Assembly: GCA_028712045.1 (NCBI GenBank)
Contig: JAQTRA010000011.1
Span: 1 to 18,677 of the forward strand
Direction: 5' to 3'
DNA from: Candidatus Omnitrophota bacterium
Lineage (GTDB): Bacteria; Omnitrophota; Koll11; Gygaellales; Profunditerraquicolaceae
Length of the DNA: 18,677 nucleotides
Positions within the stretch are counted from its first letter, which is position 1. The number at the start of each line of letters is the position of its first letter. The translations under genes and the position numbers were made by a program. Shown one piece after another: positions 1,535 to 18,677 of the stretch. A model generated the notes under the pieces. The model searched no databases. It was not told the origin of the DNA and saw nothing but the letters and a program-made list of their open reading frames with translations.

Positions 1535-1584
1535 AATTGGGGTCGGATCTATTTTCCTGAAATTAAATAGATCCGACCCCAATT
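1535..1584. repeat. Perfect 20-bp-arm palindrome between tRNA-Leu and feoB
   Basis: Arms 1535-1554 and 1565-1584 are perfect reverse complements with core GGGGTCGGATCTATTT and a 10-base loop (1555-1564). It sits between the converging tRNA-Leu and feoB genes and touches the first base of the feoB stop codon on the plus strand. It could fold as a strong hairpin in either transcript and work as a bidirectional transcription barrier, but no good U tract follows on either side. The GGGGTC-type ends resemble REP/RAYT-associated palindromes scattered in many environmental genomes; that link is from memory. Confidence 0.8.
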
Positions 1585-5176: not shown

Positions 5177-6679
5177 TTACTTTCTTAGTAATTCTTTATC
5201 TATTTTACCGGTGCGGTTTTTAGGAAGTGCCGGCCAAAACTCAAAATAATGCGGAATCTTAAAATGCGCTAAATGCAGGCGTAAAAAATAACGTAAATCT
5301 TCTTCGCTGATGCTTTTACCTTCTTTAAGGACCAGGAATGCCTTGGGCACCTCTCCTCTTAACTTATCCGCCACCCCGATTACCGCGGCTTCCGCAATAT
5401 CCGGATGCTTTTGCAGGACCGACTCAACTTCAGGCTCAAAAACAATTTCCCCGCCCACCTTAATCATCTCTTTTTTCCTGCCCACAATATAAAGAAAACC
5501 TGCCGCATCAATTTTCCCCAGGTCCCCCGTATAAAACCAGCTATTGCGGATAGTTTGGCCGGTTAATAGATCATCCTTAAAATAGCCGTCAGTAACTACC
5601 CAGCTTTTTACCGCCACTTCACCTGGCGAGCCAGCGGGTAATTCACGGTCGGTTTCATCAAAAATCTTTACCTCAATCCAAGGCGCTGGCCGGCCCACGC
5701 TTTCAATATTTCTTGACCCCATCGGCAAAACTACCGTCGGAGCATTCGTTTCAGTAAGCCCCCAACCATTTAAAAGAAAAGCCTTGGGGCAAAATTGCTG
5801 GAACCGGCGTAAGGCATCCGGCGAATTAGACGCGCCAAAAGTAACGATCCAGCGTAAACTTGATAAATCAAATGTCTCAAACTCTTTTAACTGTAAAAGC
5901 GCGTAATACATCGAAGGGACAATCCAGAAAAAATTGACTTTATGATTCTGGACATTTCTTAAAAAATCTAAAGGCGCAAACCTCTCCATTAAAACCAGGG
6001 TTAAGCCAAAAGTAATCGTATTCTGGATATAAATTAATCCGCCTAAATGCGAAAAAGGCAAAGCGCAAAGCGCAGTATCTTTAGCCCCAATATCGGCGTT
6101 AACAAAAAAAGCCATGGATTTCGGCGGGGCATCCAGCTGGGTATAGTTTATTAAAACCCCTTTGGGTTTTCCGGTTGTGCCGGAAGTATAAAAAATTATC
6201 GCGTAATCTTTATCCTCAACTTTGATTTTTGGGGCTTGCGGCTGGCTTTGATTTAAAAACTCTTCAAAACTTAAAACATCAGCTTCCTGCGCCTGGCAAG
6301 AAATAATATTTTCTAAAGAACTTACTTTATCCCTAAGGCTGGCAAATGAAATATTAGCCTTATGCTTAGTAATTAATAGTTTGGTTTCCGAGTGATTAAG
6401 GCAAGTGACTAATTCATCTTCGGTAAGCATGAAATCTAGCGGCACGCAGCAGGCGCCCACCGACCAGATCGCCAGATAACTGTAAATATACTCCGGCCAA
6501 TTGGGAAGATAAATCGCTATTTTATCCCCGCGTTTTATTCCCAGTTTCAGCAGGCTTTGGCTAAGAGAGAAAACTTTATCTTTGAGTGTAGTAAAAGAAA
6601 TCGGTTCGTCGCGGAAGATAATCGCGGGCTTACTGCTATATTTTTCGGCTGCCTGCTCTAAAACACTGATGACATTCAT
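5177..6679 (-). CDS. AMP-forming acyl-CoA synthetase / acid-CoA ligase
   Basis: 500 residues, class I adenylate-forming superfamily. It activates a carboxylic acid as acyl-AMP and transfers it to CoA. Core motifs: P-loop YTSGTTGKPKG (164-174), GWGLTETN, YTGDLGKID, the hinge region GRKKEMIKVGGEIVFEPEVE, and PKNRTGKIDKELLRK with the catalytic Lys at about 492. Substrate is not readable by eye; it is of the medium-size acyl/aryl-CoA ligase type rather than classic Acs (about 650 residues). The ATG follows the aldehyde dehydrogenase stop without a gap (TAAATG). Context suggests it activates the acid made by that dehydrogenase; supplying a starter for the nearby polyketide genes is a second possibility. 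Confidence 0.9.
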   Translation of the reverse strand: MNVISVLEQAAEKYSSKPAIIFRDEPISFTTLKDKVFSLSQSLLKLGIKRGDKIAIYLPNWPEYIYSYLAIWSVGACCVPLDFMLTEDELVTCLNHSETKLLITKHKANISFASLRDKVSSLENIISCQAQEADVLSFEEFLNQSQPQAPKIKVEDKDYAIIFYTSGTTGKPKGVLINYTQLDAPPKSMAFFVNADIGAKDTALCALPFSHLGGLIYIQNTITFGLTLVLMERFAPLDFLRNVQNHKVNFFWIVPSMYYALLQLKEFETFDLSSLRWIVTFGASNSPDALRRFQQFCPKAFLLNGWGLTETNAPTVVLPMGSRNIESVGRPAPWIEVKIFDETDRELPAGSPGEVAVKSWVVTDGYFKDDLLTGQTIRNSWFYTGDLGKIDAAGFLYIVGRKKEMIKVGGEIVFEPEVESVLQKHPDIAEAAVIGVADKLRGEVPKAFLVLKEGKSISEEDLRYFLRLHLAHFKIPHYFEFWPALPKNRTGKIDKELLRK

Positions 6680-8167
6680 TTAGAATCCATACCAGTAGTT
6701 CACCAATGGCTTGCCTTGTTCAGATTGGTCTAAAATTACATTTTTAATCCGGGTATATTCTAAGAAGCCTTCTTTGCCTAATTCTTTACCAAAACCGCTC
6801 TGCTTAAATCCGCCGTAAGGTAGTTGATTATAAAACATACCGTAAGTATTGATCCAGATTGTCCCGGCATTGATTTTTTTAGCCAGTTCCTGGGCTAAGA
6901 ACAAATCACTCGTCCAGATACAGGCCGCTAAACCAAAATCTACGCTATTGGCTAAAGATGCTGCTTCATCGGAACCGGAAAATTTATGGATCAAAACCAC
7001 CGGGCCGAACACCTCTTCCTTAAATATATGCGAATGCGCGCTGACATCAACTAAAACTGTCGGCTCAAAAAAATAACCGTTTTTAAGCTCCGGCTGATCC
7101 GGAATTTTCCCCCCGCAGAGCACCTTAGCTCCCTCGGCTTTTGCTTTTTCAATATAAGCCACTACTTTTTTACGCTGGGCGTCGCTGATCAAAGGGCCCA
7201 TCTGAGTTTGAAAATCATCAGCTAAACCCAATTTTATTCGTTTAGCCTTTTCTACAAAACTTGCCACAAATTTATCATAAATATTTTCCTGGACAAAAAT
7301 ACGCGACATCGCCGTGCACATCTGCCCCTGGTTTAAAAATATCGAAACTAAAGAACTATTTACCGCGACATCTAAGTCAGTATCGCCAAATACCAGGCTG
7401 GCGGATTTACCGCCTAGCTCCATAATCGATTTTTTTACATTTTTAGAAGAATATTGCAGGATCTGCTTGCCTACTTCATTGCTCCCGGTAAAAGAAATCA
7501 TATCCACCCGTTTATCCGCGCAAAGCAATTCACCTATTTTCATGCCGGGTGCGTTAATTACATTTACTACCCCGGCGGGCAATCCGGCCTGATGAATGAT
7601 TTTAGCCAGCTCTAAAGCCGTAAGCGGGGTAAGGCTAGAAGGCTTTAAAATAACTGTATTGCCGGCAGCTAATGCCGAAGCTAATTTCCAGCAGGCAATT
7701 AAAAGCGGATAATTCCAGGGGATGATCAAAACTACTACGCCTAAAGGCTCACGAGTTAATTTAGCTTTGGCATCCTCCGACACATGGATATCTTCGGCTT
7801 CCAGATAATCAATAAAATTATTAGCCACAAACTCAAATGTCTTAGCACTCGAAGGAATATCCATAAAAGTGGTTTCTTTGATGGGCTTGCCGGAATTTTG
7901 CATCTCCAGTTGGGCAAGATTAGCGGCGTTATCTAAAATTCCCTGGGCAATTTTAAAAATAAACTCTTTACGCTGGGCTAAAGAAAACTGCGGCCAGGGG
8001 CCATGGTCAAAAGCCTCTCTGCTGCTAGCCAAAGCTAACTCTACTTCTTTGGTTGAAGCCAGCGAAGCTTCAGCAATAACTTTGCCGGTGGAAGGATTAA
8101 TAATATTCTGTTTATCTAAAGTTTCGATAAACTGTCCATGAATAAATAACGGGCATTTTAAATTCAT
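6680..8167 (-). CDS. NAD(P)-dependent aldehyde dehydrogenase
   Basis: 495 residues, full-length ALDH superfamily protein that oxidises an aldehyde to its acid. Motifs: INPSTGKVI, IIPWNYPLL (oxyanion Asn about 152), SFTGSNEVGK, MELGGKSA with general base Glu250, FLNQGQMCTA with catalytic Cys284, EEVFGPVV, and the C-terminal GGFKQSGFGKELG. All catalytic residues are present. The start overlaps the aldolase stop (ATGA, 8164-8167) and the ligase begins directly after its stop. Between an aldolase that should release an aldehyde and an acid-CoA ligase, the likely substrate is a short aldehyde such as acetaldehyde or methylthioacetaldehyde; this is inference. Confidence 0.94.
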   Translation of the reverse strand: MNLKCPLFIHGQFIETLDKQNIINPSTGKVIAEASLASTKEVELALASSREAFDHGPWPQFSLAQRKEFIFKIAQGILDNAANLAQLEMQNSGKPIKETTFMDIPSSAKTFEFVANNFIDYLEAEDIHVSEDAKAKLTREPLGVVVLIIPWNYPLLIACWKLASALAAGNTVILKPSSLTPLTALELAKIIHQAGLPAGVVNVINAPGMKIGELLCADKRVDMISFTGSNEVGKQILQYSSKNVKKSIMELGGKSASLVFGDTDLDVAVNSSLVSIFLNQGQMCTAMSRIFVQENIYDKFVASFVEKAKRIKLGLADDFQTQMGPLISDAQRKKVVAYIEKAKAEGAKVLCGGKIPDQPELKNGYFFEPTVLVDVSAHSHIFKEEVFGPVVLIHKFSGSDEAASLANSVDFGLAACIWTSDLFLAQELAKKINAGTIWINTYGMFYNQLPYGGFKQSGFGKELGKEGFLEYTRIKNVILDQSEQGKPLVNYWYGF

Positions 8168-9159
8168 TGGATCCTGACCTCTTTAAATAAAGCAAATAAC
8201 CTGGTAAACGGAACATACCATTTGGAAAGCTGGCCTAATTGGCCGGTTAATTTCATTTTTCCCTGGGTCACCGCCACAAAACAATCTAATTTCCCTAAAA
8301 ATACCTGTTCCCAGACTAAAGCCGGAGCCGAAATCACAAAAGGCGCGTCGCTATCTGTATCTAATTTAACAATTTTACCTTTTTCAAAATTAAATTTAAA
8401 AACATTATCACTGGCATCAAGTTTAATGGCTAATTTTAAAGTTAAATCCAGCTCTTTGCCTTTTTGAGCAATGAATTCATCTTTGTTCACTAAATCTACA
8501 ATCGCCTGGATATGCGGTTGGCTAAACATAATGTACGCCGGTTGATCGCGCTTTAAATCATTTTTCAAAGCTGTATCTAAATCATCCAGAATATCCTTAT
8601 CAAAAAGCCGGGCCAAGGCTGCGGACTTAACTGCCTCTTCTAAGGCTTCCGTAAGGCTTAAAGCCTCCTGAAAATTATCCGCGATCGCGACTGTGCCATG
8701 ATTTTTTAAAACCACCAGATTATTAGTTTTTAAAGCGGCGATAACTGCTCCCGGATCAGTAACCGTCGGAGTTTCCTGAAGGATCACCGGAATATCCCCC
8801 AGGTAAAATTTAGTTTCAAAACTCATCGCCTTAAGAGTTTTACTCACGGCAAAATATCCGTTGATTAACGGCGGATGGCAATGCACCACTACTTTTGCCG
8901 GAAAGTTTTTATAGACTAAAGCGTGTAAAGGCAGCTCTGAACTGGGCTTGACGGCGCCGATATATTTGCTGTCAGCTAAATTTACTTTAACAATATCGTT
9001 TTCGCTTAACTGGCCAAGATACGTACCGGTCGCAGTAATCAAAATATTTTCTGCGTCTAATTTCGCGCTTAAGTTACCGGATTTAGCCACGGCTAGGCCC
9101 GCATCATAAAGGCGCTTACCGACTTTGATTATCTCCAACTTTAATTCTTGTTCATTCAT
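8164..9159 (-). CDS. Class II aldolase fused to a C-terminal SCP2-like domain
   Basis: 331 residues. Residues 1 to about 205 form a FucA/AraD-type class II aldolase: KSGNLSAK, ITATGTYLG, SSELPLH with Glu75, VVHCHPP with metal ligands His93 and His95, and LKNHGT with His154. The rest (about 215-328) is not part of ordinary FucA-type aldolases (about 215 residues) and looks like an SCP2 sterol-carrier-like domain: alternating strands KFNFEKGKIVKL, PFVISAPALVWEQVFLGKLD, VTQGKMKLTGQLGQLSKW. With an MtnA-like isomerase and a nucleoside phosphorylase directly upstream, the aldolase is likely the Ald2 step of the DHAP shunt, splitting 5-deoxyribulose-1-phosphate or its methylthio analogue into DHAP and an aldehyde. 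L-fuculose-phosphate aldolase is the alternative, but no fucose kinase or isomerase is present. Confidence 0.88.
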   Translation of the reverse strand: MNEQELKLEIIKVGKRLYDAGLAVAKSGNLSAKLDAENILITATGTYLGQLSENDIVKVNLADSKYIGAVKPSSELPLHALVYKNFPAKVVVHCHPPLINGYFAVSKTLKAMSFETKFYLGDIPVILQETPTVTDPGAVIAALKTNNLVVLKNHGTVAIADNFQEALSLTEALEEAVKSAALARLFDKDILDDLDTALKNDLKRDQPAYIMFSQPHIQAIVDLVNKDEFIAQKGKELDLTLKLAIKLDASDNVFKFNFEKGKIVKLDTDSDAPFVISAPALVWEQVFLGKLDCFVAVTQGKMKLTGQLGQLSKWYVPFTRLFALFKEVRIQ

Positions 9160-9161
9160 AT

Positions 9162-10076
9162 TTAGACCTTTAAATAAATGTGCTTGGTAATTAATTTTGC
9201 CGGGGTAACATCAAAAGCCGGATAATACGCTTTAACTTCTTTGGGCGCAAGGAGCAACCCCTGATAAATTTTAAGCTCATCATCCGGCCGGATTTCTATT
9301 TTAATATCTTTGCCTGTTTTTAACTTTGATGGCGGCGGGCAAAGGACATAAAAAGGAATTTTAAAATAATTAGCCACTACCGCAATCTGATAGGTGCCAA
9401 TTTTATTAGCAATATCGCCGTTTAAGGTTAAGTGGTCTGCTCCGACGATAACTTTAGTAACTTTGCCTAAGGATAATAAATATGCCACCATATTATCAGT
9501 AATAATCGTCACCTCAAAACCCGCGCGCATAATCTCCCAGGCAGTGAGCCGGGAACCCTGCAAATACGGCCGGGTTTCTGTAACGTAAAAATTTATTTTC
9601 TTACCCTGCTCTAAAGCAAATTGCGCGATTAACGGCATTAACCCGCTGACATTACAATGCGTTAAAATTACATCCCCATCTTTTAATAAATCTGCCGTAT
9701 CGTGCGCTTGCTGAATTCTTTTTTGCTTAAGCATCTCTAAAAAACCAAAAATAGTTTTTTCTAAAGGAGCACCGCTTTTTTCCCACCCTAAAACTATCTC
9801 GGTTAAAGATTTAAAAGACAAAGTCGGCCGGGTGGCATTAAGTGCTGCGGCAACATCCGCCAGATTTTTATTCTGTTGTTTGCTTAAAATAAAAGTATAC
9901 ATTACCAAAAGTACCTGGCCCACAGCGCGGGTTTTCATCTGCTTAATTGCGCTGCATGCCTGTAAGTAATTTTTAGCCTTGATATAGACGAGCTTTTGCG
10001 GAAGCTGGGTCTCATCCAGGATAGAAATCGTATTAGCTTTTAATTGAATCGGCCAGAAAAGCGGAGAAAATTTCAT
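9162..10076 (-). CDS. MtnA-like methylthioribose-1-phosphate / 5-deoxyribose-1-phosphate isomerase
   Basis: 304 residues, aIF-2B/MtnA family. MtnA converts 5-methylthioribose-1-phosphate to the ribulose-1-phosphate; some members also act on 5-deoxyribose-1-phosphate. Strong matches: ILDETQLPQ near the N terminus, ATRPT (81-85), ILTHCNVSG with catalytic Cys141, ETRPYLQGSRLTAWE, ITDNM, and GADHLTLNGDIANKIGTY with catalytic Asp214. The protein is about 40 residues shorter than usual MtnA, and the MRGAPAIG phosphate-loop region is degenerate (KTRAVGQV, 49-56). Catalytic residues are retained, so it is likely active. It abuts the phosphorylase upstream (TAAATG), with the aldolase 2 bases downstream. 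A non-catalytic eIF-2B-like protein is less likely. Confidence 0.88.
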   Translation of the reverse strand: MKFSPLFWPIQLKANTISILDETQLPQKLVYIKAKNYLQACSAIKQMKTRAVGQVLLVMYTFILSKQQNKNLADVAAALNATRPTLSFKSLTEIVLGWEKSGAPLEKTIFGFLEMLKQKRIQQAHDTADLLKDGDVILTHCNVSGLMPLIAQFALEQGKKINFYVTETRPYLQGSRLTAWEIMRAGFEVTIITDNMVAYLLSLGKVTKVIVGADHLTLNGDIANKIGTYQIAVVANYFKIPFYVLCPPPSKLKTGKDIKIEIRPDDELKIYQGLLLAPKEVKAYYPAFDVTPAKLITKHIYLKV

Positions 10077-10826
10077 TTATTTTCCTTCTAATTTTTTAAC
10101 TAATTCTAAGGCGATTTTGATCAAATTCGACTCAGCCATATAATAAAGTGGATTCATAAAGCCCATTTCCCCGGTAATGACATTGTCGCTTACCGCTAAT
10201 ATAGAACAAGCCTTAATATTATAGGTCTGACAAATGGTTAAAAGGGTTGAGGAAACCATATCCACAGCCCGGGCGCCTTCTTTACGTTTAGCTTCGACGA
10301 TCTCGCGTGTTTCGCGTAATAAAGCATCCGTGGTCCAGGACTTACCGCGATGCACAGTTAAGCCCATGCCCTGAGCAATCTCAAACAAAAGATCAGATAG
10401 CTTCTTATCACTTACGGTCTTAAAATCTTTACCCACATAATATGGCGTTACCCCGTCGCCGCGGATAACCTCATCCACCACAAATAAATCCCCTACCTTA
10501 ATATTCTCATCAAGCGACCCACAGGTGCCGACACGGATAATATTCTGGATTCCCGCGTTGCACATTACTTCCGTAGTAATCGAAGTATCCGTAGAAAACC
10601 TACCACCATTGATCCCGGTAACTTTAATTCCTTCATAGGTGCCGGTATACATAGTGTATTCCATAAAAGAAAAATTGCGCACGGGATTCTCAATTTTCTT
10701 CATTAAGACATCCAGCCGGTCACGCGGCCCGGGCACAATCGCATATTTACCCACATCAGCCGGCCTCAACTGCACCATCTCCGTTAAATCTCTTCCAGTT
10801 AAATGAACATTTTTCTGCATTTGCAT
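10077..10826 (-). CDS. Nucleoside phosphorylase (PNP/uridine phosphorylase family)
   Basis: 249 residues from the chosen ATG. NP-I family; phosphorolyses a nucleoside to base and (deoxy)ribose-1-phosphate. Motifs: IVPGPRDR near the N terminus (phosphate loop), TGTYEGIKVTGINGG, NIIRVGTCGSLD (phosphate Arg and the family Gly turn), VDMVSSTLLT (about 188-197) and ILAVSDN. In most family members the fourth motif reads EMES or EMEA; here the second Glu, which contacts the ribose hydroxyls, is Val191. A longer in-frame TTG start (10842-10844) is rejected because a strong SD AAGGAG lies 7 bases before the ATG at 10824-10826. First gene of the salvage operon; 5'-deoxyadenosine or methylthioadenosine is the substrate suggested by the neighbours, uridine by sequence style. 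Confidence 0.87.
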   Translation of the reverse strand: MQMQKNVHLTGRDLTEMVQLRPADVGKYAIVPGPRDRLDVLMKKIENPVRNFSFMEYTMYTGTYEGIKVTGINGGRFSTDTSITTEVMCNAGIQNIIRVGTCGSLDENIKVGDLFVVDEVIRGDGVTPYYVGKDFKTVSDKKLSDLLFEIAQGMGLTVHRGKSWTTDALLRETREIVEAKRKEGARAVDMVSSTLLTICQTYNIKACSILAVSDNVITGEMGFMNPLYYMAESNLIKIALELVKKLEGK

Positions 10827-10833
10827 TTTATTT

Positions 10834-10839
10834 CTCCTT
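10834..10839 (-). promoter_or_regulatory. Shine-Dalgarno site that fixes the phosphorylase start
   Basis: AAGGAG on the minus strand, 7 bases upstream of the ATG at 10824-10826. It overlaps codons of the longer TTG-initiated frame, which argues that the shorter protein is real. Confidence 0.85.
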
Positions 10840-10872
10840 ATCAATTAACGCGGCTGTCTTGTCTTGTTTCTC

Positions 10873-11011
10873 GCGGGACGCTTGTTTTGCCCCTGCGAGG
10901 CAAAACTGCGCTCGCGTCGGATGGCGTCGCTCTGCCGTGCTTCGTAATAGCCGGGCAACCGTGCCCGCTCCTGGCCTCCACGCCCGCTCGAAATCAAGCC
11001 AAGCCACCCGC
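10873..11011. repeat. GC-rich intergenic repeat, copy A
   Basis: The roughly 210-base gap between the amidohydrolase and the phosphorylase holds a segment much richer in GC than its surroundings. It begins GCGGGACGCTTGTTTTGCC and ends AAATCAAGCCAAGCCACCCGC region-wise with inverted GCGGG/CCCGC ends. It shares both ends with the segment at 16442-16504 read on the other strand (GCGGG, CTTGTTTT, AAATCAAG, GCCACCCGC). Inside are an 8-bp hairpin (10884-10891 with 10899-10906, GTTTTGCC/GGCAAAAC) and two copies of GCCCGCTC (10963-10970, 10982-10989). No gene or clear promoter is seen in this gap. The hairpin may reduce read-through between the two operons. Confidence 0.65.
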
Positions 11012-11039
11012 TATAAATAAAATTTATCTCGCTAAAATA

Positions 11040-11951
11040 CTAAAGAGCAAATATTCTCTCTAAATTTTTACCCAAAATACTTTCCTTATCATCCCCGGAT
11101 AAATCTAAATCCTTGACCGCTTTAATGCCACTAGCAATATCTTGCTTTGCCGGCCAGTCACTGCCCCATAAAATCCGCCGGGCACCCATAAGTTCCAGGG
11201 CAAGCGCAAAATTCGCTTTCGTGGTATCCCCGCTGGTATCCACGTAAATATTTTTAAAATATTCTGATGGCGCGGCCTGCAGATCCTTAACAAAATTCAT
11301 TCCCCGCAGCATCGCATAAGTCGCATCAAATCGCTGCTTGAGATAACAGATCGCTCCGCCAAAATGCGCAAAAACAAAATTTACTTTGGAATAAAGCCGC
11401 AAAACATCCGACATCAGCAATTTTCCGATTGAAATAGTCGTATCAAAAACATATTCCACCACCGGAGTAAGCAAAGGGTCTTTAACCCGCTCATAACCTA
11501 TAGGATTAACAATTTGCGAGTGCACAAAAATCGGGATATTCTTCTCGGCTGCTTGTTTATACACCGGTAAAAACATCAGGTCATCCAGATAGATCCCGTT
11601 ATAACTGGAAGCCAGGGAAATCGCCTTAAATCCCAATTCTTCCGTCGCCCGCTTGATCTCTCCAATCATATCAATAGAATTATCTACCGGTAAAATTGCC
11701 GCGCCGATAAACCGATTACCATAACGTTTAAGGATTTTGCCTACATTATCATTATAAATATGCGCCACTTCACTGATACTGCCTAATTTTAAATGCGCAT
11801 CCGTAGTCGGATAACTCAAAACTGCCTTGTCAATTCCTGAGCTATCCATCATTTTAAGCTGCGCTTCAATATCACCCCACCCCTTATGAAAAAAATGGGA
11901 GTTGGTGATAATTTCATCCGGCAGCCAATGGCTATGCGCGTCAATTAACAT
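11040..11951 (-). CDS. Amidohydrolase 2 (ACMSD-type) metal-dependent hydrolase or decarboxylase
   Basis: 303 residues, TIM-barrel amidohydrolase family PF04909. Metal-site motifs are present: DAHSH at the N terminus (His6, His8), FVHSQ with His144, FAHFGGA with His196, and WGSDWP with Asp265. This family contains aromatic decarboxylases (ACMSD, gamma-resorcylate and carboxyvanillate decarboxylases) as well as hydrolases. The ATG directly follows the stop of the 137-residue gene (TAAATG). At the end of a putative aromatic polyketide operon it could decarboxylate or hydrolyse the aromatic product; this is inference. A GC-rich repeat follows its stop codon. Confidence 0.87.
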   Translation of the reverse strand: MLIDAHSHWLPDEIITNSHFFHKGWGDIEAQLKMMDSSGIDKAVLSYPTTDAHLKLGSISEVAHIYNDNVGKILKRYGNRFIGAAILPVDNSIDMIGEIKRATEELGFKAISLASSYNGIYLDDLMFLPVYKQAAEKNIPIFVHSQIVNPIGYERVKDPLLTPVVEYVFDTTISIGKLLMSDVLRLYSKVNFVFAHFGGAICYLKQRFDATYAMLRGMNFVKDLQAAPSEYFKNIYVDTSGDTTKANFALALELMGARRILWGSDWPAKQDIASGIKAVKDLDLSGDDKESILGKNLERIFAL

Positions 11952-12365
11952 TTAGTGCTCCGTGCTCCTTAAAATACGCTGCAGCATCTCTCTTTCATAA
12001 AGCCTTTTAATATCTTCTAAGGCCCTTCTGCCCAGTTCTTTGGCAATTAATTTCTCAATAGCGTTGAGTTTCATATCCAGAAAAATAAAATCCGGGTTTG
12101 TTTTCTTACCCTGGTATTTTAAATCCATACAGGCTTTTTCTTTACTGGAGATATAATCCCGGAAACCATCAATAAGCTTCTCTAATTCAACTTTTTCATG
12201 CGGTAAATAAGCACCCAGAAGCGTGCTTTCCAGCTCACTTAAAATATCTTTATCAATCTCAGTTTGCGTAAACTTACGCTCGTATTTATCAAACGCCTCT
12301 TTGGTAGTTTTATACAACCAGACAAAATACCTTTTTTGTAAATTCCTTACGTCTTGTTTGTTCAT
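11952..12365 (-). CDS. Small helical protein of unknown function
   Basis: 137 residues, not recognised. It is charged, rich in Lys, Glu and Leu, and predicted by eye to be almost wholly alpha-helical with heptad-like stretches (for example LNAIEKLIAKELGRRALEDIKRL as a pattern, positions about 100-122). It has no signal peptide, no membrane segment and no conserved cysteine pair; the single Cys is about residue 79. A good SD (GGAGGT) precedes the ATG. It sits between the secreted CBM-like protein and the amidohydrolase, without gaps that would suggest its own promoter, so it is likely co-transcribed with the polyketide genes. Confidence 0.8.
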   Translation of the reverse strand: MNKQDVRNLQKRYFVWLYKTTKEAFDKYERKFTQTEIDKDILSELESTLLGAYLPHEKVELEKLIDGFRDYISSKEKACMDLKYQGKKTNPDFIFLDMKLNAIEKLIAKELGRRALEDIKRLYEREMLQRILRSTEH

Positions 12366-12375
12366 CTTACCTCCG

Positions 12376-12987
12376 TTATTTTTTCACCAGTTCCACTGTG
12401 TCAAAATAAAGCGTGCCTTTAGACCCGGGAAGCGGCTCAAACTGGCAAACCTTGATCGGAAAATCAATCTGCCCGTTTTTATCCGCGCCATCCGGCTGCC
12501 AATCATCCCGCACCGCGAATTTATCAAAACTGCAGACTACTTTTTTCCATCCCTTAAAATCATCTTCGACGATAAAACGCCAGATCTCTGAACCGCTATC
12601 CTTAATATCAAAAGCAATCTTGGCCTTAGAATTTGTCCCGTAAATATAAAAAGATAAGGCACTGTAATTTTCCCACTTTACATCTGATGGTTTAAGCGTC
12701 CAATTCGCGTTCTTAGCATCCAGGCCGGTACCGCGGGCAACATAAATATAACCTCCGGCAACAGCATCATAAACTACTTTTAACGATTGGTTGCCGCTAT
12801 TCTTAATATCCGTAGATTGGGTTACTTCCACTGCCGAGCCGTTACCGGCGCCAAAATCAACTGTCCCCTCCGGGCCGCTGGAAACTGAAATCTCAAAATC
12901 ATCAAGTAATAAATCATCACCTTCGGCTGAACAAGGTTGCGCAGTTAATAACATTGCCAAAGCTGCTAAAAATGCGAATCTTTTCAT
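12376..12987 (-). CDS. Secreted protein with a CBM11/CIA30-like beta-sandwich domain
   Basis: 203 residues. A typical signal peptide (MKRF, hydrophobic AFLAALAMLL, then PCSA with cleavage after about Ala21) directs export. The mature part begins LLLDDFE and reads as one beta-sandwich of the kind seen in CBM11, CIA30 and related galactose-binding-like domains: NQSLKVVYD, YSALSFYIYG, KIAFDIKDSG, KGWKKVVCSFDKF, and the C-terminal GTLYFDTVELVKK. Ligand unknown; carbohydrate or a lipophilic compound are possible. It lies in the middle of the putative polyketide operon, 21 bases after the dehydrogenase gene, with its own SD (AAGGAG). Its role there is not clear. Confidence 0.82.
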   Translation of the reverse strand: MKRFAFLAALAMLLTAQPCSAEGDDLLLDDFEISVSSGPEGTVDFGAGNGSAVEVTQSTDIKNSGNQSLKVVYDAVAGGYIYVARGTGLDAKNANWTLKPSDVKWENYSALSFYIYGTNSKAKIAFDIKDSGSEIWRFIVEDDFKGWKKVVCSFDKFAVRDDWQPDGADKNGQIDFPIKVCQFEPLPGSKGTLYFDTVELVKK

Positions 12988-13008
12988 TTCCCTACTCCTT
13001 TTTTGTTG

Positions 13009-13785
13009 TTACTTCGTTGGATGTTGTTGTTTAAATGGTATTACCGGAGCTGTCCAGGGAGTTTGCTGATTAATTACGGAAATCTCCAAAGGACAGACAT
13101 TCGCCGGCACAGTTAAAGCAAAACGCACCGCGTCTTCTATTGCCTGTGTACTCATTAAACGCGAATTATCATTAGTAATATCTTTAAGTTTGCCGGTTAA
13201 ATCCGTATCAGTTACTCCGGGCAAAATTGAAGTCACTTTAATCCCGTGATCACGCAACTCCCAGAACAAACCTTTGGAAAAGGCCCGCAAACCCACTTTA
13301 AGTGAACTGTAAACAATAAAATTTCTCGGCACCGGGTCAACCAAAGTTGAACCGGAAACAATATTGATGATTGCTCCGGATTTTTGGCTGATCATATCAT
13401 TAATTACCAGCCGGATCAGACGCACATACCCCAGATAATTCGTATGCGCTAATTTTTCAAAATCTTCAACCGGCTGTTTTTCAAATGCATACTGGCTGGA
13501 TACTCCGGCGCAATTAATTAAAATATCGATCTTGCCAAACTTTTCTTTGGTTTTGCTGACCAAATTCTCTAAATCCTCTAACTTGGCCACATCACAGGGA
13601 AGGGCTAAAACCTCAACTTTGTATTTCGATTTAATTTCATCGGCAGTTTCTTTTAAAGGGCCCTCACCGCGCGCCGCAATCGCCAGGTTAATCCCCAGGC
13701 TGGCAGCAGTACAAGCCAACGCCTTGCCAATACCCCGGCTAGCGCCGGTAAGAATCGCAACTTTACCTTTTAAATCCGTGCTCAT
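13009..13785 (-). CDS. Short-chain dehydrogenase/reductase, candidate polyketide ketoreductase
   Basis: 258 residues, classical SDR. Cofactor motif TGASRGIG (13-20) with an AAR stretch at the end of strand 2 that favours NADP(H), NCAG (91-94), catalytic Asn116, Ser144 or Ser146 in NIVSGST, and YSSLK with Tyr159 and Lys163. The PGVTDTDLTG segment follows. Substrate is not readable from sequence. In the neighbourhood of a chain-length factor, ACP and aromatase, it is the natural candidate for the ketoreductase acting on a nascent poly-beta-keto chain, but its C-terminal part is more like general SDRs than like actinorhodin KR. SD GGAGG lies just upstream of the ATG. Confidence 0.9.
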   Translation of the reverse strand: MSTDLKGKVAILTGASRGIGKALACTAASLGINLAIAARGEGPLKETADEIKSKYKVEVLALPCDVAKLEDLENLVSKTKEKFGKIDILINCAGVSSQYAFEKQPVEDFEKLAHTNYLGYVRLIRLVINDMISQKSGAIINIVSGSTLVDPVPRNFIVYSSLKVGLRAFSKGLFWELRDHGIKVTSILPGVTDTDLTGKLKDITNDNSRLMSTQAIEDAVRFALTVPANVCPLEISVINQQTPWTAPVIPFKQQHPTK

Positions 13786-13799
13786 AATTGCCTCCGTTA

Positions 13800-14921
13800 T
13801 TATTTTTCAAATCGAAAAATTTTTTCCAGAAATAAAATTAAAAGCAGCGCACTGCCAAAAACAATAAAGCCTAAATTAAAACTTCTCTGCATCACTAAAC
13901 CGCCTAAACTTACGCCCAGGCCGCCGGCAATAAAACGCACTCCGCTATTTAAGCTGGCCGCTTCATTTAATAATTCAGCCGGTAAATCAGTCAGCATAGT
14001 CGCCAAACCTACATGATTAAAGGTCCAACCCAGGCCCCAGATAATCATAATTAAACCAAGTAAAATTAAAGGCAGCTTTAATAAAAGCAGCGCGATACAA
14101 AAAACCATAGCGATGATACCCAGGTTTACCACCCGCAGCCTGCCTATCTTATCCGCAAGATGCCCGCCGAAAAATTCGCCAAATATTCCGCTGAAACTAG
14201 TCAGGGTAATCAACATGCTGATCGTAAACTGGTTTAGAAAACGCTGCGTTGAAAAATATACCCCTAACCACTGCTGCACCGCATGATAAATCAGGCTAAG
14301 AAGAAAAATATAGATAAAGATCCTGATTACTTTTTTATTTTTAAACGCGGCAAAGTATCCAAACCGTAAACGGCCTAAATCTTCATTAAAACGCGGCAAA
14401 TAAATATACATAAAAATCCAAAGCATAAAACCCAAAACCGCAGGAATAATAAAAATCAGGCGCCAGGGAATAATCCCGCTCAAGAACAAACCTAATAAAG
14501 AAGCAATAAAAGTAGAGCCGAAAAATACGCCAATATAGCCTCCCCGCTTATTTTGGTTTACGCGTTTAGCAATCAAGATCAGCCCCAGCGGAATAACCGA
14601 AGCGCCAAACAAACCCATCAGGAACCTGGCGATAAAAAGCGTGGTGATATTTTGCGCTAACCCGGCCAGAAAGTTGGCCAAAGAAAACAAGAATATGCAA
14701 ACCAGCTCTACTTTGCGGGCATCAAAAGCGCGCACCAACGGCCCATAAAAAAATGCTGCCAGGCCATAGGGAAGCATATACAGCCAGATAATTTTACCTA
14801 CCGCAAACTGAGAAAGAGCAAAATCAGCAGCAATAGAAGGGATCAACGCTGCGGCTGCGGCAACATTAAAAGATAAAAGCGAACCTTCTAAACAAAGAAT
14901 ACTAAAAGTGGTTTTCTTCAC
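13800..14921 (-). CDS. MFS transporter, probable exporter
   Basis: 373 residues with about 12 hydrophobic segments, major facilitator superfamily. The loop motif between TM2 and TM3 is loosely kept (GPLVRAFDARKVE), a charged central loop occurs near residues 178-200 (PRFNEDLGRLRFG), and GGHLADKIGRLRV marks the second-half repeat motif. It starts with GTG (14919-14921), overlapping the cyclase stop as GTGA. Coupled translation with the aromatase/cyclase gene suggests export of the pathway product; drug-efflux type is the closest style. Substrate not determinable. Confidence 0.9.
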   Translation of the reverse strand: MKKTTFSILCLEGSLLSFNVAAAAALIPSIAADFALSQFAVGKIIWLYMLPYGLAAFFYGPLVRAFDARKVELVCIFLFSLANFLAGLAQNITTLFIARFLMGLFGASVIPLGLILIAKRVNQNKRGGYIGVFFGSTFIASLLGLFLSGIIPWRLIFIIPAVLGFMLWIFMYIYLPRFNEDLGRLRFGYFAAFKNKKVIRIFIYIFLLSLIYHAVQQWLGVYFSTQRFLNQFTISMLITLTSFSGIFGEFFGGHLADKIGRLRVVNLGIIAMVFCIALLLLKLPLILLGLIMIIWGLGWTFNHVGLATMLTDLPAELLNEAASLNSGVRFIAGGLGVSLGGLVMQRSFNLGFIVFGSALLLILFLEKIFRFEK

Positions 14922-15355
14922 TTACTTTCTTTTTCGATAATCTCTTTAAAAATTTTCAGATTATGCTGCGAGCCTTCATTAATAAACCCTTCAATCTGAG
15001 AATCATTAAATTTAGCTTTAGCTTCCATTTCAAAATGCTGGATCCAGGCCATCTCTACTCCCTCAGGCTTAGGAGTATAAAGCCAGATAATCTTCATATA
15101 TTTAAAAGGAAATTTCGGCTCTTCTCTTTCGGCGTAAGCAAAAAACTTATCTTTAAAAAGCAGGCGCCAGGATTGCCAGGATTTATCATCTTCGTCAGTC
15201 AGGCGAAAGGTAATTTTGTTCGCTTCTTTTTTGACTACCTCGGCTTTTTTATATTCACTGCCGAATAATTCTGTCCAACGAATAATATCATTGGAAATAT
15301 CAAAAACTAAATCATACGGCGCGTTAATAATTATAGAATTACAGGTATGTCCCAT
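14918..15355 (-). CDS. TcmN/WhiE-like polyketide aromatase/cyclase (SRPBCC fold)
   Basis: 145 residues, START/SRPBCC domain. The N terminus MGHTCNSIIINAPYDLVFDISNDI, then WTELFGSEYKKAEVVKK and KITFRLT, closely follows the pattern I recall for aromatase/cyclases of bacterial type II polyketide clusters (TcmN N-terminal domain, WhiE-ORFVI: GHTDNSIVIDAPMDLVWD-like start, WPELFSEY). Further on, FKYMKIIWLY and GVEMAWIQHFEM match the FEYM-IHW and GVEMRWVQDFAM segments. Such proteins fold the poly-beta-keto chain and close the first ring in a hydrophobic pocket. An AGGAGG SD overlaps the stop of the upstream PF04199 gene. General coenzyme Q-binding or lipid-binding SRPBCC proteins are the alternative. 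Confidence 0.85.
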   Translation of the reverse strand: MGHTCNSIIINAPYDLVFDISNDIIRWTELFGSEYKKAEVVKKEANKITFRLTDEDDKSWQSWRLLFKDKFFAYAEREEPKFPFKYMKIIWLYTPKPEGVEMAWIQHFEMEAKAKFNDSQIEGFINEGSQHNLKIFKEIIEKESK

Positions 15356-15364
15356 GCTGTCCTC

Positions 15365-16162
15365 CTAAATAATTGCGACTACTCTGGCCCAGGCGGCACC
15401 AGTATTCTTAATGCGGATCGGAAAACAAAGTATTTTAAACCCGCAATCCGGCAGCTTTTCTAAATTAGCTAACCGCTCAATATGAATAAACTCTTTAATC
15501 CTTCCGTAAAAATGCGCCGGATAAAATTGTTTGGGGTCTTTGGTTTTTAAAAACTCGCTTAACATAAACCTATACGGCCGGTCAATGCCCATGGTATCTA
15601 CCCCAAAAATCTTAATCCCCCGCGCTAAAAGATAATCAATCGCCGTCGGGTCAACACCGGGATAATCCGCAAAATATTTCGCTCCCCCATATAATTTATC
15701 CGCGCCGGTATGCAATAAAACGATATCCAAGGGCTTTAACTGATAATTTATCTTCTTCAGCGCCGCTTCAATATCCTCTGCCTTAATTACTTCATTTGGT
15801 TTTTTATGCCTTAAATCTAATTTCACTCCATTTTGATAACAATACTCTAAGGGTATCTCATCGGCAGTTTTAGAGGCCCTGCCTTCTGATTTAGAGCCGT
15901 AATGGAAAGAATAATCCAGATGCGTGCCGATATGCACCGGCGAATGTACAATTTCCAGTGATAGAAATTCTTCATCCGGAAGGTCAACGGGTTTGATAAT
16001 GCGCTGGCCGAAAATATATTTGATCCTGCCCCAGAAAGTCTTACCCATAATTACCCGGTTAAATTTTTTGACCCCGGCTTTATGGGTTACGCGTTCAATA
16101 TCAACCTTGTGCACCTCAAAGGCTTTTTCGTCAATGGGCAGGCTTAAATCAACTATTTTCAT
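15365..16162 (-). CDS. PF04199 cyclase family protein (kynurenine-formamidase-like fold)
   Basis: 265 residues. The family metal motif HIGTHLD is present (His77, His81, Asp83), followed by His87; the DLSLPI start and the VLLHTGAD and FGVDTMGID segments are also typical. Members include arylformamidases and proteins of antibiotic clusters called cyclases. The ATG overlaps the ACP stop (ATGA, 16159-16162), and the TcmN-like gene follows 9 bases after the stop. This tight coupling with an ACP and an aromatase suggests a step on the ACP-bound or just-released polyketide, such as ring closure or hydrolytic release. Exact reaction unknown. Confidence 0.88.
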   Translation of the reverse strand: MKIVDLSLPIDEKAFEVHKVDIERVTHKAGVKKFNRVIMGKTFWGRIKYIFGQRIIKPVDLPDEEFLSLEIVHSPVHIGTHLDYSFHYGSKSEGRASKTADEIPLEYCYQNGVKLDLRHKKPNEVIKAEDIEAALKKINYQLKPLDIVLLHTGADKLYGGAKYFADYPGVDPTAIDYLLARGIKIFGVDTMGIDRPYRFMLSEFLKTKDPKQFYPAHFYGRIKEFIHIERLANLEKLPDCGFKILCFPIRIKNTGAAWARVVAII

Positions 16163-16395
16163 TTGCTTAATTTGGCTCCAATATTGCTTACAATATCATT
16201 GATCGTGGAATTTTTAGTAATCTCTTTCGGGCTAAGTTTCACCGCAAAAGCCTTTTCTAAAGCAATCACTGACTCCACCATCTCAGTAGAATCCACGCCA
16301 ATGCTATTGATCAAAGACACATCGTCCTTTAACTCCTCGATTTTTACTTTTAATAAATTCGCCAACACATCTTTAACTTTAATCTTAATATCCAT
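16159..16395 (-). CDS. Acyl carrier protein (polyketide/fatty acid type)
   Basis: 78 residues, a single ACP domain. GVDSTEMVE carries the phosphopantetheine attachment Ser36 (DS, followed by Thr where fatty-acid ACPs have Leu). Four-helix pattern with acidic helix II is visible. The DST variant and the location next to a chain-length factor and cyclases suggest a dedicated polyketide ACP rather than the housekeeping AcpP (usually DSLD). SD AGGAGG is 5 bases before the ATG. It is separated from the radical SAM gene upstream by 114 bases holding a palindromic repeat. Confidence 0.92.
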   Translation of the reverse strand: MDIKIKVKDVLANLLKVKIEELKDDVSLINSIGVDSTEMVESVIALEKAFAVKLSPKEITKNSTINDIVSNIGAKLSK

Positions 16396-16434
16396 ATTTT
16401 CCTCCTAATACTTTAAAAAAACATTAAGAATAAC

Positions 16435-16511
16435 AAATTTTGCGGGTGGCGAGACTTGATTTGAGCCGCGGTGTGCGGCGAAAACAAGGCTCGACAGGAC
16501 CCGCAAAATTT
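16435..16511. repeat. GC-rich intergenic palindromic repeat, copy B
   Basis: Perfect 13-bp inverted ends AAATTTTGCGGGT (16435-16447) and ACCCGCAAAATTT (16499-16511) enclose a GC-rich core with a small inner hairpin GCCGC/GCGGC (16465-16469 with 16475-16479). The right arm overlaps the stop codon of the radical SAM gene (16510-16512). Read on the minus strand it shares GCGGG, CTTGTTTT, AAATCAAG and GCCACCCGC with copy A near 10.9-11.0 kb. In the transcript it would form a large hairpin between the radical SAM gene and the ACP gene, which may stabilise or attenuate the message. The rest of the 16396-16509 gap is AT-rich with no evident gene. Confidence 0.75.
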
Positions 16512-17970
16512 ATATCTGCACTTCGCCTTTAGTCGCGGCAGCTTCCCATTTACCGATCCCATCCATAACATCTTTAAAACAAAGCTTAGCTAGCGGATCA
16601 AAATCACTCTCCATGATCCGGTTAATCCTGCCCGGCTTTGAGAAAAATTCACGCATACACCAGGAACCCAGGCGGCCAAGATCTTCGGTAGTTAAATGAT
16701 CCGTGGGAATTACCGGATGCAGAAAATCCCATTGGCTAAAATCTACTTTTTTAGGATCAATCCAGTTTTTCTTTAAAGCGATCCTCCACATCGGTGAATT
16801 CGGAGCGGGGGTAACATAACCCACCCACAGAATATCCGGGTCAACCTGGTCAGTAAACTCAAAACGCTGTTTGATAATCTCTTCAGTATCATAATCAAAC
16901 CCCATCATAATATCGGCGACAATGGCGATATCGTTTTTGCGGAACATATCGATGGTTTTTTTAATCTGATCAATAGTAATGCCTTTGGCGATTTTCTTAA
17001 GCTCTGACTGCGTGGTAACTTCAATGCCGAAAACACCCATAATTAAACCATTCTCTTTCATCATCGGCAGGATAGATTCGCAATTAACCCAATCCGTGGC
17101 CCGGCCTAAAGATACCCATTTGATCGGATTATTCGAGGCTTTTTTAAGTTCACAGAACTTCCGCACCCTTTCCGGATCAACATTAAAATTGTCATCCTGG
17201 ATAACCACGACTTTAACTCCGTACTTCCTATGCAGGATATTCAGCTCTTCCATTACTCTTTCCGGGGACTTCGCGCGCCATTTTAAAAAGTCCGAAGGCG
17301 AGCGCGGGTCAAATTGGTCCCATTCATAGCAAAAGGTACACGCTGAAGGGCAGCCGCGGGAAGTAACCATATCCACAAAAGGCTTCCAGTAAGTATGCCC
17401 GACATATTTATCCATCGGAAATAAATCATAGGCTGGCAAAGGAAGTTTATCTAAATCTACCATCAACGGTTTATGCGGGCCCATAACAATTTCGCCATTT
17501 ATGCGAGAAGTAACGCCTCCCACATCTTTAAGAGGTTTATTTTTATCGATTGCTTCCAGTAAATCTCCAAAAGATTCTTCTTCGCCCATAACTATAAAAT
17601 CAACCTCAGGAATTTCTTCTAATGTCGGCACTGGCATGGCTGAATACCATAATCCACCCAGGATTATTTTTGTTTTAGGCAGGGCTTTTTTAATCCCGAT
17701 AGCCGCGTCTTTAAAATGCCTTAAAACCCCGTATCCGCCATAACCGTGCAACTGCTCACCCATCACTACGATATCCGGATTTTTAAGTTTTACCTGTTCG
17801 ATAAGCGCGTCCATAGGAATCTGGTCTGCTTTACCGTCTAGGACCGCGACATCCGTATAGCCTCTTTCACGCGCGTAGGCTGCCCAATGCGCGTATAACT
17901 GGTTTGGAGAACGGTGGATTCCATGGGTTGCCCAAGCGCCGACTTTCGGCATAACAAATAATATTTTCAT
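16510..17970 (-). CDS. B12-binding-type radical SAM enzyme (BchE/HpnJ-like class B architecture)
   Basis: 486 residues. An N-terminal Rossmann domain (about 1-145; MKILFVMPKVG, PDIVVMGEQ, KIILGGLWYSAMP, DFIVMGEEE) matches the cobalamin-binding domain of class B radical SAM enzymes; the classical DxHxxG His is not visible. The radical SAM domain has TSRGCPSACTFC with Cys207, Cys211 and Cys214, an IQDDNFN segment and MMGFD. Family members include methyltransferases and BchE-type oxidative cyclases that work without oxygen. SD GGAGG lies before the ATG, 12 bases from the upstream ketosynthase-like gene. Context suggests oxygen-independent methylation, oxidation or ring modification of a polyketide. 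Substrate is unknown. Confidence 0.9.
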   Translation of the reverse strand: MKILFVMPKVGAWATHGIHRSPNQLYAHWAAYARERGYTDVAVLDGKADQIPMDALIEQVKLKNPDIVVMGEQLHGYGGYGVLRHFKDAAIGIKKALPKTKIILGGLWYSAMPVPTLEEIPEVDFIVMGEEESFGDLLEAIDKNKPLKDVGGVTSRINGEIVMGPHKPLMVDLDKLPLPAYDLFPMDKYVGHTYWKPFVDMVTSRGCPSACTFCYEWDQFDPRSPSDFLKWRAKSPERVMEELNILHRKYGVKVVVIQDDNFNVDPERVRKFCELKKASNNPIKWVSLGRATDWVNCESILPMMKENGLIMGVFGIEVTTQSELKKIAKGITIDQIKKTIDMFRKNDIAIVADIMMGFDYDTEEIIKQRFEFTDQVDPDILWVGYVTPAPNSPMWRIALKKNWIDPKKVDFSQWDFLHPVIPTDHLTTEDLGRLGSWCMREFFSKPGRINRIMESDFDPLAKLCFKDVMDGIGKWEAAATKGEVQI

Positions 17971-17982
17971 TTCTTCCTCCTG

Positions 17983-18677
17983 TTATTTTTCAACTACTAA
18001 TGCTGCGTTAATCCCGCCGCGGCCCCGGGAAATAATTAAAGCTTTATTTATTTTGTATTCTTTGGCTTCGCCAGTTACATAATTTAATCCATTAACGCCT
18101 GGCACATCCAAATTTAAGGTAATCGGAACCAGGCTATGCTCCATAGCTAAAATAGTAGTGATCATATCTACTGCTCCTGATGCCCCTAGCAAATTGCCAA
18201 ACATTGATTTCGGACAGCTCATCGGGATATCTTTTAGCCTGGGCCCAAAAACTATTTTTAAGGCATTAATTTCAGAGTTATCCCATAAATCCACAGCTAA
18301 ACCATCTAAACTAATATAATCTATTTGCTCAGCATTAACTTGCGCGTCAATTAACGCATTGTTTATCGCCCGGGCTAATTGTTTGCCATCACTGACGCAA
18401 TTTATTCTATCCACTCCATCGCAAGATGTGCTGTAACCGCTGATATAGCCTAAAATACTGGCGCCTCTTTTCTTCGCCCGCGCAATACCTTCCATCACCA
18501 CGATCCCGGAACCCTCTCCGATAACAAAACCATCGCGTTTTTTATCAAACGGCCGGTAAGCTGCCTGCGGATCGTTATTATTTTTAGAAAGTGCGCCATA
18601 AGTATTGCAACATAATAATGCGTACGGCGTAACCGGAGCTTCCATCCCCCCGCCTAAAATCATATTTAATTTACCTT
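17983..18677 (-). CDS. Type II PKS ketosynthase-beta / chain-length factor, C-terminal part (cut by right edge)
   Basis: The reading frame runs through the right edge; the internal ATG at 18661-18663 is not the start, as the frame continues upstream with GKLN before MILGGGMEAPVTP. The 230 visible residues are the C-terminal half of a beta-ketoacyl synthase: GGGMEAP, DPQAAYRPFDKKRDGFVIGEGSG, CPKSMFGNLLGASGA. Both catalytic His are lost: HGT of active KS is YISLDGLA (Asp at visible residue 124) and GHLLGAAG is GNLLGASG (Asn at 161). The end RGRGGINAALVVEK resembles chain-length factors (actinorhodin-type RGRWGFNSAAV) rather than the GFGGxN end of FabF. It would pair with a KS-alpha, expected upstream off the window, to set polyketide length. 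The normal active-site Cys position is outside the window. Confidence 0.85.
   Translation of the reverse strand, partial: GKLNMILGGGMEAPVTPYALLCCNTYGALSKNNNDPQAAYRPFDKKRDGFVIGEGSGIVVMEGIARAKKRGASILGYISGYSTSCDGVDRINCVSDGKQLARAINNALIDAQVNAEQIDYISLDGLAVDLWDNSEINALKIVFGPRLKDIPMSCPKSMFGNLLGASGAVDMITTILAMEHSLVPITLNLDVPGVNGLNYVTGEAKEYKINKALIISRGRGGINAALVVEK

What the first reader, a model, noticed from the sequence alone, without database searches (positions are those of the whole stretch)
11040..18677. Partial type II (aromatic) polyketide synthase cluster in a probably anaerobic, non-actinobacterial genome
A chain-length-factor-like ketosynthase, a stand-alone ACP, a PF04199 cyclase, a TcmN/WhiE-like aromatase/cyclase, an MFS exporter and an SDR lie in one direction with coupled or near-coupled starts. 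Seen directly: the motifs and overlaps. Known: this gene set defines type II PKS clusters, which are rare outside Actinobacteria. Inference: the product is an aromatic polyketide. This combination, with a B12-type radical SAM enzyme and an amidohydrolase, does not match a cluster I know.
Basis: partly seen in the sequence, partly recalled or inferred. Interest (0 to 1): 0.88.

Follow-up and report, generated by a model that had tools for sequence, protein, structure and literature searches.

The report
Conserved anaerobic aromatic polyketide operon
This DNA carries part of a gene set for building ring-shaped (aromatic) polyketides, probably without oxygen, and a little-studied, uncultivated bacterial phylum called Omnitrophota has kept nearly the same set in many of its members, which suggests a real physiological role rather than an occasional antibiotic.

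Summary
The window ends inside a chain-length factor (KS-beta) of a type II polyketide synthase, followed on the same strand by a cobalamin-type radical SAM enzyme, ACP, PF04199 cyclase, TcmN-like aromatase (E=4e-25), MFS exporter, SDR and amidohydrolase. In relatives the missing KS-alpha (Cys-His-His) lies upstream, next to KS-beta in 64 of 71 loci. Trees put both KSs with type II PKS pairs, apart from FabF and two aryl-polyene KSs. The contig is Omnitrophota-type: 75 of 80 related loci bear that name; 84 of 235 Omnitrophota genomes carry the aromatase. The operon is larger than reported: downstream follow a nucleoside phosphorylase, MtnA-like isomerase, aldolase, aldehyde dehydrogenase and acyl-CoA ligase. 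With the radical SAM enzyme these form a separable module: six loci have it without PKS genes, each beside an MMPL/LolA-like/DUF1302-type set. The aldolase carries an SCP2 lipid-binding domain. Product and role are unknown; menaquinone replacement was tested and is not supported. KS-CLF hits in Omnitrophica were in a 2023 catalogue; the searches made here found no description of the operon or module. A new variant of a known kind, with one possibly new pathway inside it.

The parts
17983..18675 (-). KS-beta / chain-length factor, C-terminal 230 residues (N-terminal half lies beyond the window)
   Evidence: PF00109+PF02801; both catalytic His columns changed to Asp and Asn; in 14 of 14 picked relatives the Cys column is Arg/Lys; full-length relatives group with CLFs
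16510..17970 (-). radical SAM enzyme with B12-binding-type N-terminus, BchE/HpnJ-like
   Evidence: PF04055 72 bits, PF02310 34.8 bits; NCBIfam best BchE 203 bits (cut-off 481), HpnJ 152; best matches 47-96% identical in 82 of 84 aromatase-bearing genomes, a few split or partial
16159..16395 (-). stand-alone acyl carrier protein with DS attachment motif
   Evidence: PF00550 41.9 bits
15365..16162 (-). PF04199 cyclase-family metal hydrolase
   Evidence: 104 bits; in 37 of 37 well-covered loci
14918..15355 (-). TcmN-like aromatase/cyclase (SRPBCC)
   Evidence: PDB phmmer TcmN 2rez E=4.2e-25; Pfam PF03364 27 bits
13800..14921 (-). MFS exporter
   Evidence: PF07690 136 bits; 24 of 37 well-covered loci
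13009..13785 (-). SDR ketoreductase-like
   Evidence: PF00106 170 bits; 34 of 37 loci
12376..12987 (-). secreted CBM11-type domain protein, variable member
   Evidence: PF03425 71 bits; 18 of 37 loci
11952..12365 (-). unknown 137-aa protein, variable member
   Evidence: no family; 23 of 37 loci
11040..11951 (-). amidohydrolase-2 family protein (a fold family that includes decarboxylases, recalled)
   Evidence: PF04909 96 bits; 36 of 37 loci
10077..10844 (-). nucleoside phosphorylase, own subfamily
   Evidence: PF01048 119 bits; DeoD's SD motif kept, DeoD EME aligned to DMV; 32 of 37 loci
9162..10076 (-). MtnA-like (deoxy/methylthio)ribose-1-phosphate isomerase
   Evidence: PF01008 190 bits; PDB 1t9k E=3e-50; 31 of 37 loci
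8164..9159 (-). class II aldolase fused to a C-terminal SCP2-like lipid-binding domain
   Evidence: PF00596 120 bits; C-terminal 128 residues modelled alone match sterol carrier protein 2cx7, TM 0.81; 33 of 37 loci
6680..8167 (-). aldehyde dehydrogenase
   Evidence: PF00171 554 bits; 30 of 37 loci
5177..6679 (-). AMP-forming acyl-CoA ligase
   Evidence: PF00501 280 bits; 22 of 37 loci

Best explanation
The window holds the 3' part of a long operon of Omnitrophota. Most likely a KS-alpha/CLF pair and ACP build a poly-beta-keto chain from malonyl-CoA; the TcmN-like protein and the PF04199 protein fold and aromatise it; the SDR and the PanE-like protein reduce it; the amidohydrolase removes a carboxylate; and MFS exports it in the lineages that have it. 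The B12-type radical SAM enzyme carries out an oxygen-free step (oxidation, ring closure or side-chain chemistry) where actinobacterial clusters would use oxygenases. The phosphorylase, isomerase, aldolase, aldehyde dehydrogenase and ligase act on the adenosyl-derived product of that enzyme, at the least its by-product 5'-deoxyadenosine. Shown here: the gene set, the catalytic columns of both KSs in relatives, the KS phylogeny, the TcmN match, the linkage and the spread. Inferred: all reactions, their order, the product and the role.
For: KS-alpha with intact Cys/His/His and KS-beta with Cys to Arg/Lys, His to Asp, His to Asn in 14 of 14 picked pairs. KS-alpha groups with act KS, Streptomyces, Azospirillum and Priestia KS-alpha at 100/97 and KS-beta with CLFs at 100/100; FabF-type KSs from the same phylum group elsewhere. 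TcmN E=4e-25. A Priestia megaterium plasmid carries the same PF04199-SRPBCC pair beside its KS pair. Conserved linkage in 37 well-covered loci and in 20 divergent loci that I chose. 84 of 235 Omnitrophota genomes have the aromatase, 82 of these the radical SAM (expected 32.5) and 81 the aldolase (expected 35.0). AccA, a malonyl-CoA supply gene, lies in 16 of 98 aromatase loci. Radical SAM divergence tracks a housekeeping protein (Spearman 0.75, n=74), so inheritance looks mostly vertical.
Against: No product is known. KS-alpha scores above the FabF subfamily cut-off NF005589 (446 against 387 bits) and could be annotated FabF. The radical SAM falls far below the BchE equivalog cut-off (203 against 481), so its reaction is open. 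The N-terminal half of KS-beta and the KS-alpha of this very contig are not seen. Radical SAM identity reaches 75% in genomes whose RlmN is only 40-50% identical, so some transfer is likely. Nine genomes with an aldolase match have neither radical SAM nor aromatase (several of these matches are partial or carry stops). The Fisher tests treat related genomes as independent.
Confidence: 0.75

Rival explanations
1. The nucleoside phosphorylase, isomerase, aldolase, ALDH and ligase are an ordinary DHAP shunt: they recycle free 5'-deoxyadenosine made by the radical SAM enzyme into adenine, DHAP and acetyl units, and have nothing to do with the product's structure.
Against: An SCP2 lipid-binding domain on the aldolase has no obvious use in acetaldehyde chemistry; the ligase is nearest a long-chain fatty-acyl model, below its cut-off; the phosphorylase is far below the MTAP cut-off (24.6 of 274.9 bits) and has DMV where DeoD has EME. 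Nine genomes have an aldolase match without the radical SAM or aromatase.
Confidence: 0.42
2. The polyketide is a quinone that replaces menaquinone in respiration.
For: Aromatase and futalosine-pathway genes (PF02621) co-occur in 0 of 235 genomes, 16.8 expected. Two aromatase genomes with full-strength NuoH (G094, G156) show neither MenD over cut-off nor PF02621.
Against: 12 of 15 genomes with MenD over cut-off also carry the aromatase; 7 of the 9 aromatase genomes with NuoH at E<1e-95 (my threshold) have MenD; 70 of 84 aromatase genomes show neither (counted). So the polyketide coexists with menaquinone and the exclusion looks like a clade effect.
Confidence: 0.05
3. The KS pair makes a lipid or polyene (specialised fatty acid or aryl-polyene type), not a cyclised aromatic.
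For: KS-alpha passes a FabF subfamily cut-off; no ring-forming step has been assayed.
Against: CLF partner without catalytic residues, TcmN-like aromatase and PF04199 in all 37 well-covered loci; the two aryl-polyene KSs tested group elsewhere; no dehydratase was recognised among the recurrent families that I scanned.
Confidence: 0.08

Closest known systems
Actinobacterial type II PKS (actinorhodin, tetracenomycin)
   Same: KS-alpha/CLF/ACP, TcmN-type aromatase, SDR, exporter; homologous KS and CLF and aromatase
   Different: CLF active-site Arg/Lys instead of Gln; no oxygenase found among the genes scanned; radical SAM instead; carried by about a third of sampled genomes of a phylum
Non-actinobacterial type II PKS (Priestia and Azospirillum plasmid clusters; clostrubin from anaerobes)
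   Same: CLF 'DRAS' motif shared with Priestia and Azospirillum; Priestia has the PF04199-SRPBCC pair and an AMP-binding protein; clostrubin shows anaerobes make such compounds (PMC5321127, PMC11747023, passages)
   Different: in the annotated stretches those clusters carry methyltransferases or monooxygenase-type proteins and no radical SAM or phosphorylase-aldolase module is listed (gene tables there are incomplete); the clostrubin cluster was not compared
KS-CLF hits listed for Candidatus Omnitrophica (PMC10132072)
   Same: same phylum and protein kind; one of 14 phyla in that catalogue (passages)
   Different: its main text names the phylum once, in the list; operon, spread and partners are not described in the passages read
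BchE / HpnJ cobalamin radical SAM enzymes
   Same: best two NCBIfam models; this non-methylating group does ring formation or rearrangement (PMC13142503, preprint, passages)
   Different: below the equivalog cut-offs; no hopanoid context (PF13249 cyclase domain 0 of 42 genomes)
DHAP shunt
   Same: phosphorylase, MtnA-like isomerase, class II aldolase
   Different: different phosphorylase subfamily, SCP2 domain on the aldolase, extra ALDH and ligase, operon with PKS

Membership tests
Type II PKS | KS-alpha with Cys-His-His next to a KS-beta | tested here: met
   in relatives (within 150 nt in 64 of 71 loci); in this contig it lies beyond the window
Type II PKS | KS-beta (CLF) lacking catalytic residues | tested here: met
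   window: His to Asp and Asn; relatives also Cys to Arg/Lys
Type II PKS | stand-alone ACP | tested here: met
   16159-16395, PF00550
[quoted passage not shown]
   only two aryl-polyene KSs and ten reference PKS rows were used, and the aryl-polyene rows are long branches
Type II PKS | aromatase/cyclase homologous to a characterised one | tested here: met
   TcmN E=4e-25; pocket W, Y, W and first R columns (roles recalled) kept in all 8 rows aligned to TcmN, a second R is Lys in two
Type II PKS | makes an aromatic polyketide | not testable with these tools
   needs enzymes or cells
Type II PKS | malonyl-CoA:ACP transacylase available | not tested
   none seen in the operon genes scanned; housekeeping FabD not searched
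BchE | score above equivalog cut-off TIGR02026 | tested here: not met
   203 bits against 481
Cobalamin-type radical SAM | CxxxCxxC plus B12-binding domain | tested here: met
   motif SRGCPSACTFCYEW (translation); PF04055 and PF02310 both above cut-off in the window; in the PKS-less L142 PF02310 is just below
DHAP shunt | MTAP/MtnP-family phosphorylase | tested here: not met
   TIGR01694 24.6 bits against 274.9
DHAP shunt | MtnA-family isomerase | tested here: inconclusive
   above TIGR00524 (201.9 against 185.9), below the equivalog TIGR00512 (218 against 279)
DHAP shunt | class II (FucA-like) aldolase | tested here: met
SCP2 domain | sequence and fold match of the aldolase C-terminus | tested here: met
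   PF02036 27.5 and 23.6 bits in L142 and L077 (cut-off 21.3), 20.8 in the window, just below; fold match to 2cx7

The most novel reading that the evidence does not exclude
The separable module is a new pathway that lengthens a hydrophobic molecule by two carbons taken from the ribose of SAM. The radical SAM enzyme joins its 5'-deoxyadenosyl group to a lipid or polyketide carbon; the phosphorylase removes adenine; the isomerase makes a ribulose-1-phosphate; the SCP2-aldolase, holding the greasy part, splits off DHAP and leaves a -CH2-CHO end; the ALDH and ligase turn it into an acyl-CoA. In PKS-less Omnitrophota that acyl chain would go to an MMPL/LolA-like/DUF1302-type export set; in the others it would feed or finish an aromatic polyketide, giving a lipid-aromatic hybrid that many members of the phylum have kept even in genomes near 1 Mb. 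Adenosylation by a cobalamin-type radical SAM enzyme would itself be new, as far as I recall.
Probability: 0.22. Interest if true: 0.92.

Novelty: new variant of a known kind. Interest (0 to 1): 0.72.

Why it matters
Type II polyketides are best known as sporadic actinobacterial antibiotics made with oxygenases. Here a deep-branching KS-CLF lineage is carried by 84 of 235 sampled genomes of an uncultivated phylum, including genomes near 1 Mb, looks mostly vertically inherited, and sits beside an oxygen-free radical enzyme. That points to a physiological role and gives a tractable set of enzymes for oxygen-free aromatic chemistry. If the SCP2-aldolase module works on a lipid-linked adenosyl product, it would be a new way to extend carbon chains.

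Tried and rejected
Quinone replacement: looked attractive from the exclusion with futalosine genes, then weakened by MenD co-occurrence. UbiA matched in 164 of 235 genomes and was not analysed further. Hopanoid origin of the phosphorylase: not supported, HpnH over cut-off in 0 of 42 (40 of 42 had weaker hits; the 14 control genomes also gave 0 over cut-off, so no positive control) and PF13249 in 0 of 42 genomes (control rang in 1 of 14). The second look on the whole aldolase listed aldolase-fold proteins only, so the C-terminal part was modelled alone. Promoter and terminator scans were at or below shuffle level (42 against 43.7; 14 against 21.3). Literature searches that gave nothing on this operon: (0 papers), 26, 122 and others named in the report. 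An intergenic repeat idea at 10845-11039 found no exact copy of one piece in 155 loci.

Rows dropped: the KS tree left out three near-duplicate KS pairs and the partial window row; seven of fourteen extra genome KSs failed my motif filter. One search's counts include one contig twice (L047 and L138); one search recounts without it and is the one cited. ACP is undercounted there because antisense frames win in my ORF caller.

Of nine radical SAM-positive, aromatase-negative genomes two are truncated PKS loci (L147, L148) and one (G079) has no aldolase match; six are counted as PKS-less. Their whole genomes were not searched for other KS genes.

Full report
Observation. The window's minus strand carries a run of close-set genes from 18675 down to 5177, with further same-strand genes after it. 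The amidohydrolase and phosphorylase are 195 nt apart; the other downstream genes are 0-2 nt apart or overlap by 4 (coordinates). No whole genome is held for the window.

Where it comes from. The aromatase has 1278 database relatives; the best 120 are listed and every listed one with an organism name is Omnitrophota. A scan of genome contigs with an alignment of the window protein and 19 of these gave 109 confirmed places, 80 kept; 75 of the 80 titles read Omnitrophota or Omnitrophica, four read 'bacterium' and one Planctomycetales.

The missing half. tblastn of 15 window proteins against the 80 loci shows one main gene order, with a variant in six loci. ORF clustering adds upstream a small DUF2621-like protein, a PanE-like reductase, a doubled TIGR04076 protein and a KS-alpha. 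In 37 distinct loci with at least 7 kb on each side of the aromatase: KS-alpha 37, KS-beta 37, PF04199 37, radical SAM 36, amidohydrolase 36, PanE 36, SDR 34, aldolase 33, phosphorylase 32, isomerase 31, ALDH 30, ACP 28 (undercounted), MFS 24, ligase 22 of 37. KS-alpha and KS-beta lie within 150 nt in 64 of 71 loci that hold both. Twenty divergent loci that I chose keep the core: all 20 have KS-beta, PF04199 and aromatase.

Is it a type II PKS? KS-alpha keeps Cys, His, His; KS-beta has Arg or Lys, Asp, Asn at those columns in all 14 picked pairs, and the window shows the last two. Azospirillum and Priestia KS-beta share the DRAS motif; the actinobacterial CLFs used have Gln. Two trees agree: KS-alpha within the PKS KS-alpha group, KS-beta with CLFs, FabF-type KSs of the same phylum with E. 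coli and Thermus FabF. The second tree includes two E. coli aryl-polyene KSs, which fall outside the PKS groups, on long branches. The aromatase finds TcmN at 4e-25 among solved structures. Against this reading, KS-alpha passes a FabF subfamily cut-off. On balance it is a genuine but deep-branching type II PKS.

Spread. In 235 Omnitrophota genomes drawn evenly, with completeness of at least 80 requested, 84 have the aromatase, 91 the radical SAM at E<=1e-60 and 98 the aldolase at E<=1e-20. Overlaps: aromatase and radical SAM 82, aromatase and aldolase 81, radical SAM and aldolase 88, against 32.5, 35.0 and 37.9 expected; related genomes are not independent. Nine genomes have an aldolase match but neither of the others; several of those matches are partial or carry stops. 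Aromatase genomes reach down to about 1.0 Mb (size column). Identity of the radical SAM to the window protein follows that of the housekeeping RlmN (Spearman 0.75, n=74) and is higher in 62 of 74. Some genomes break the trend.

The separable module. Nine genomes have the radical SAM without the aromatase. Six of them (L141-L146) carry ligase, radical SAM, phosphorylase, isomerase and aldolase together, four of these also the ALDH, with no match to KS, ACP, PF04199 or aromatase in the DNA held. In L142 the next genes are an MMPL transporter, a LolA-like protein and a DUF1302 protein; homologues follow in all six. That trio occurs in one further locus, L147, a truncated PKS-type locus, and in none of the other loci held then. 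Of the remaining three genomes two are truncated PKS loci and one lacks an aldolase match.

Roles tested. A menaquinone substitute is not supported: 12 of 15 MenD genomes carry the aromatase, and 70 of 84 aromatase genomes show neither MenD nor full-strength NuoH; two genomes with NuoH and no known pathway gene remain unexplained. Hopanoid metabolism is not supported.

Prior knowledge. PMC10132072 (passages) lists Candidatus Omnitrophica among 14 phyla with KS-CLF hits. PMC9902471 (passages) reports Omnitrophota gene-cluster expression in general and ladderane-type hits; the passages do not mention this operon. PMC5383146 (passages) reports Omnitrophica bins with a complete B12 pathway, which fits a cobalamin enzyme. 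PMC5462960, PMC12632272 and PMC13014828 were opened for passages and changed nothing. Searches were made; no paper on this operon was seen among those opened. Most papers listed were not opened, and subscription journals are not held.

Verdict. The PKS is a new variant of a known kind; the module is the most interesting unknown.

Noticed in passing
P0060, P0095, P0112; aromatase matches in L016, L032, L063, L075, L076: Some aromatase genes are longer than the rest; three aligned proteins carry an in-frame insert near residue 100 with a similar ALATGSQTT-like text, as if a short dispersed repeat had landed in the gene. The longer genes in the listed loci were not compared.
   Followed up: no
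window 10845-11039: The widest gap in the run is G+C-rich and repeat-like; no exact copy of a 21-base piece in 155 loci.
   Followed up: partly
window 1535-1584: Perfect 20-base inverted repeat with a 10-base loop between the Nfo and FeoB genes.
   Followed up: no
L022: A MAG titled Planctomycetales carries the Omnitrophota-type cluster; its KSs sit among Omnitrophota rows, so the title may be wrong.
   Followed up: partly
L095 (G077, contig C1 near 437 kb): A second KS-alpha of the same group lies about 550 kb from that genome's PKS locus.
   Followed up: no
16 loci (such as L008); L141, L142, L144: AccA and a PadR-type regulator sit upstream of PKS versions and of three PKS-less versions, suggesting one ancestral site (PadR was scanned in one locus and otherwise judged by family or length).
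   Followed up: partly
G004 contig C22 (L135): In one genome a complex I-type NuoH gene lies about 14 kb from the KS-alpha of the PKS operon.
   Followed up: partly
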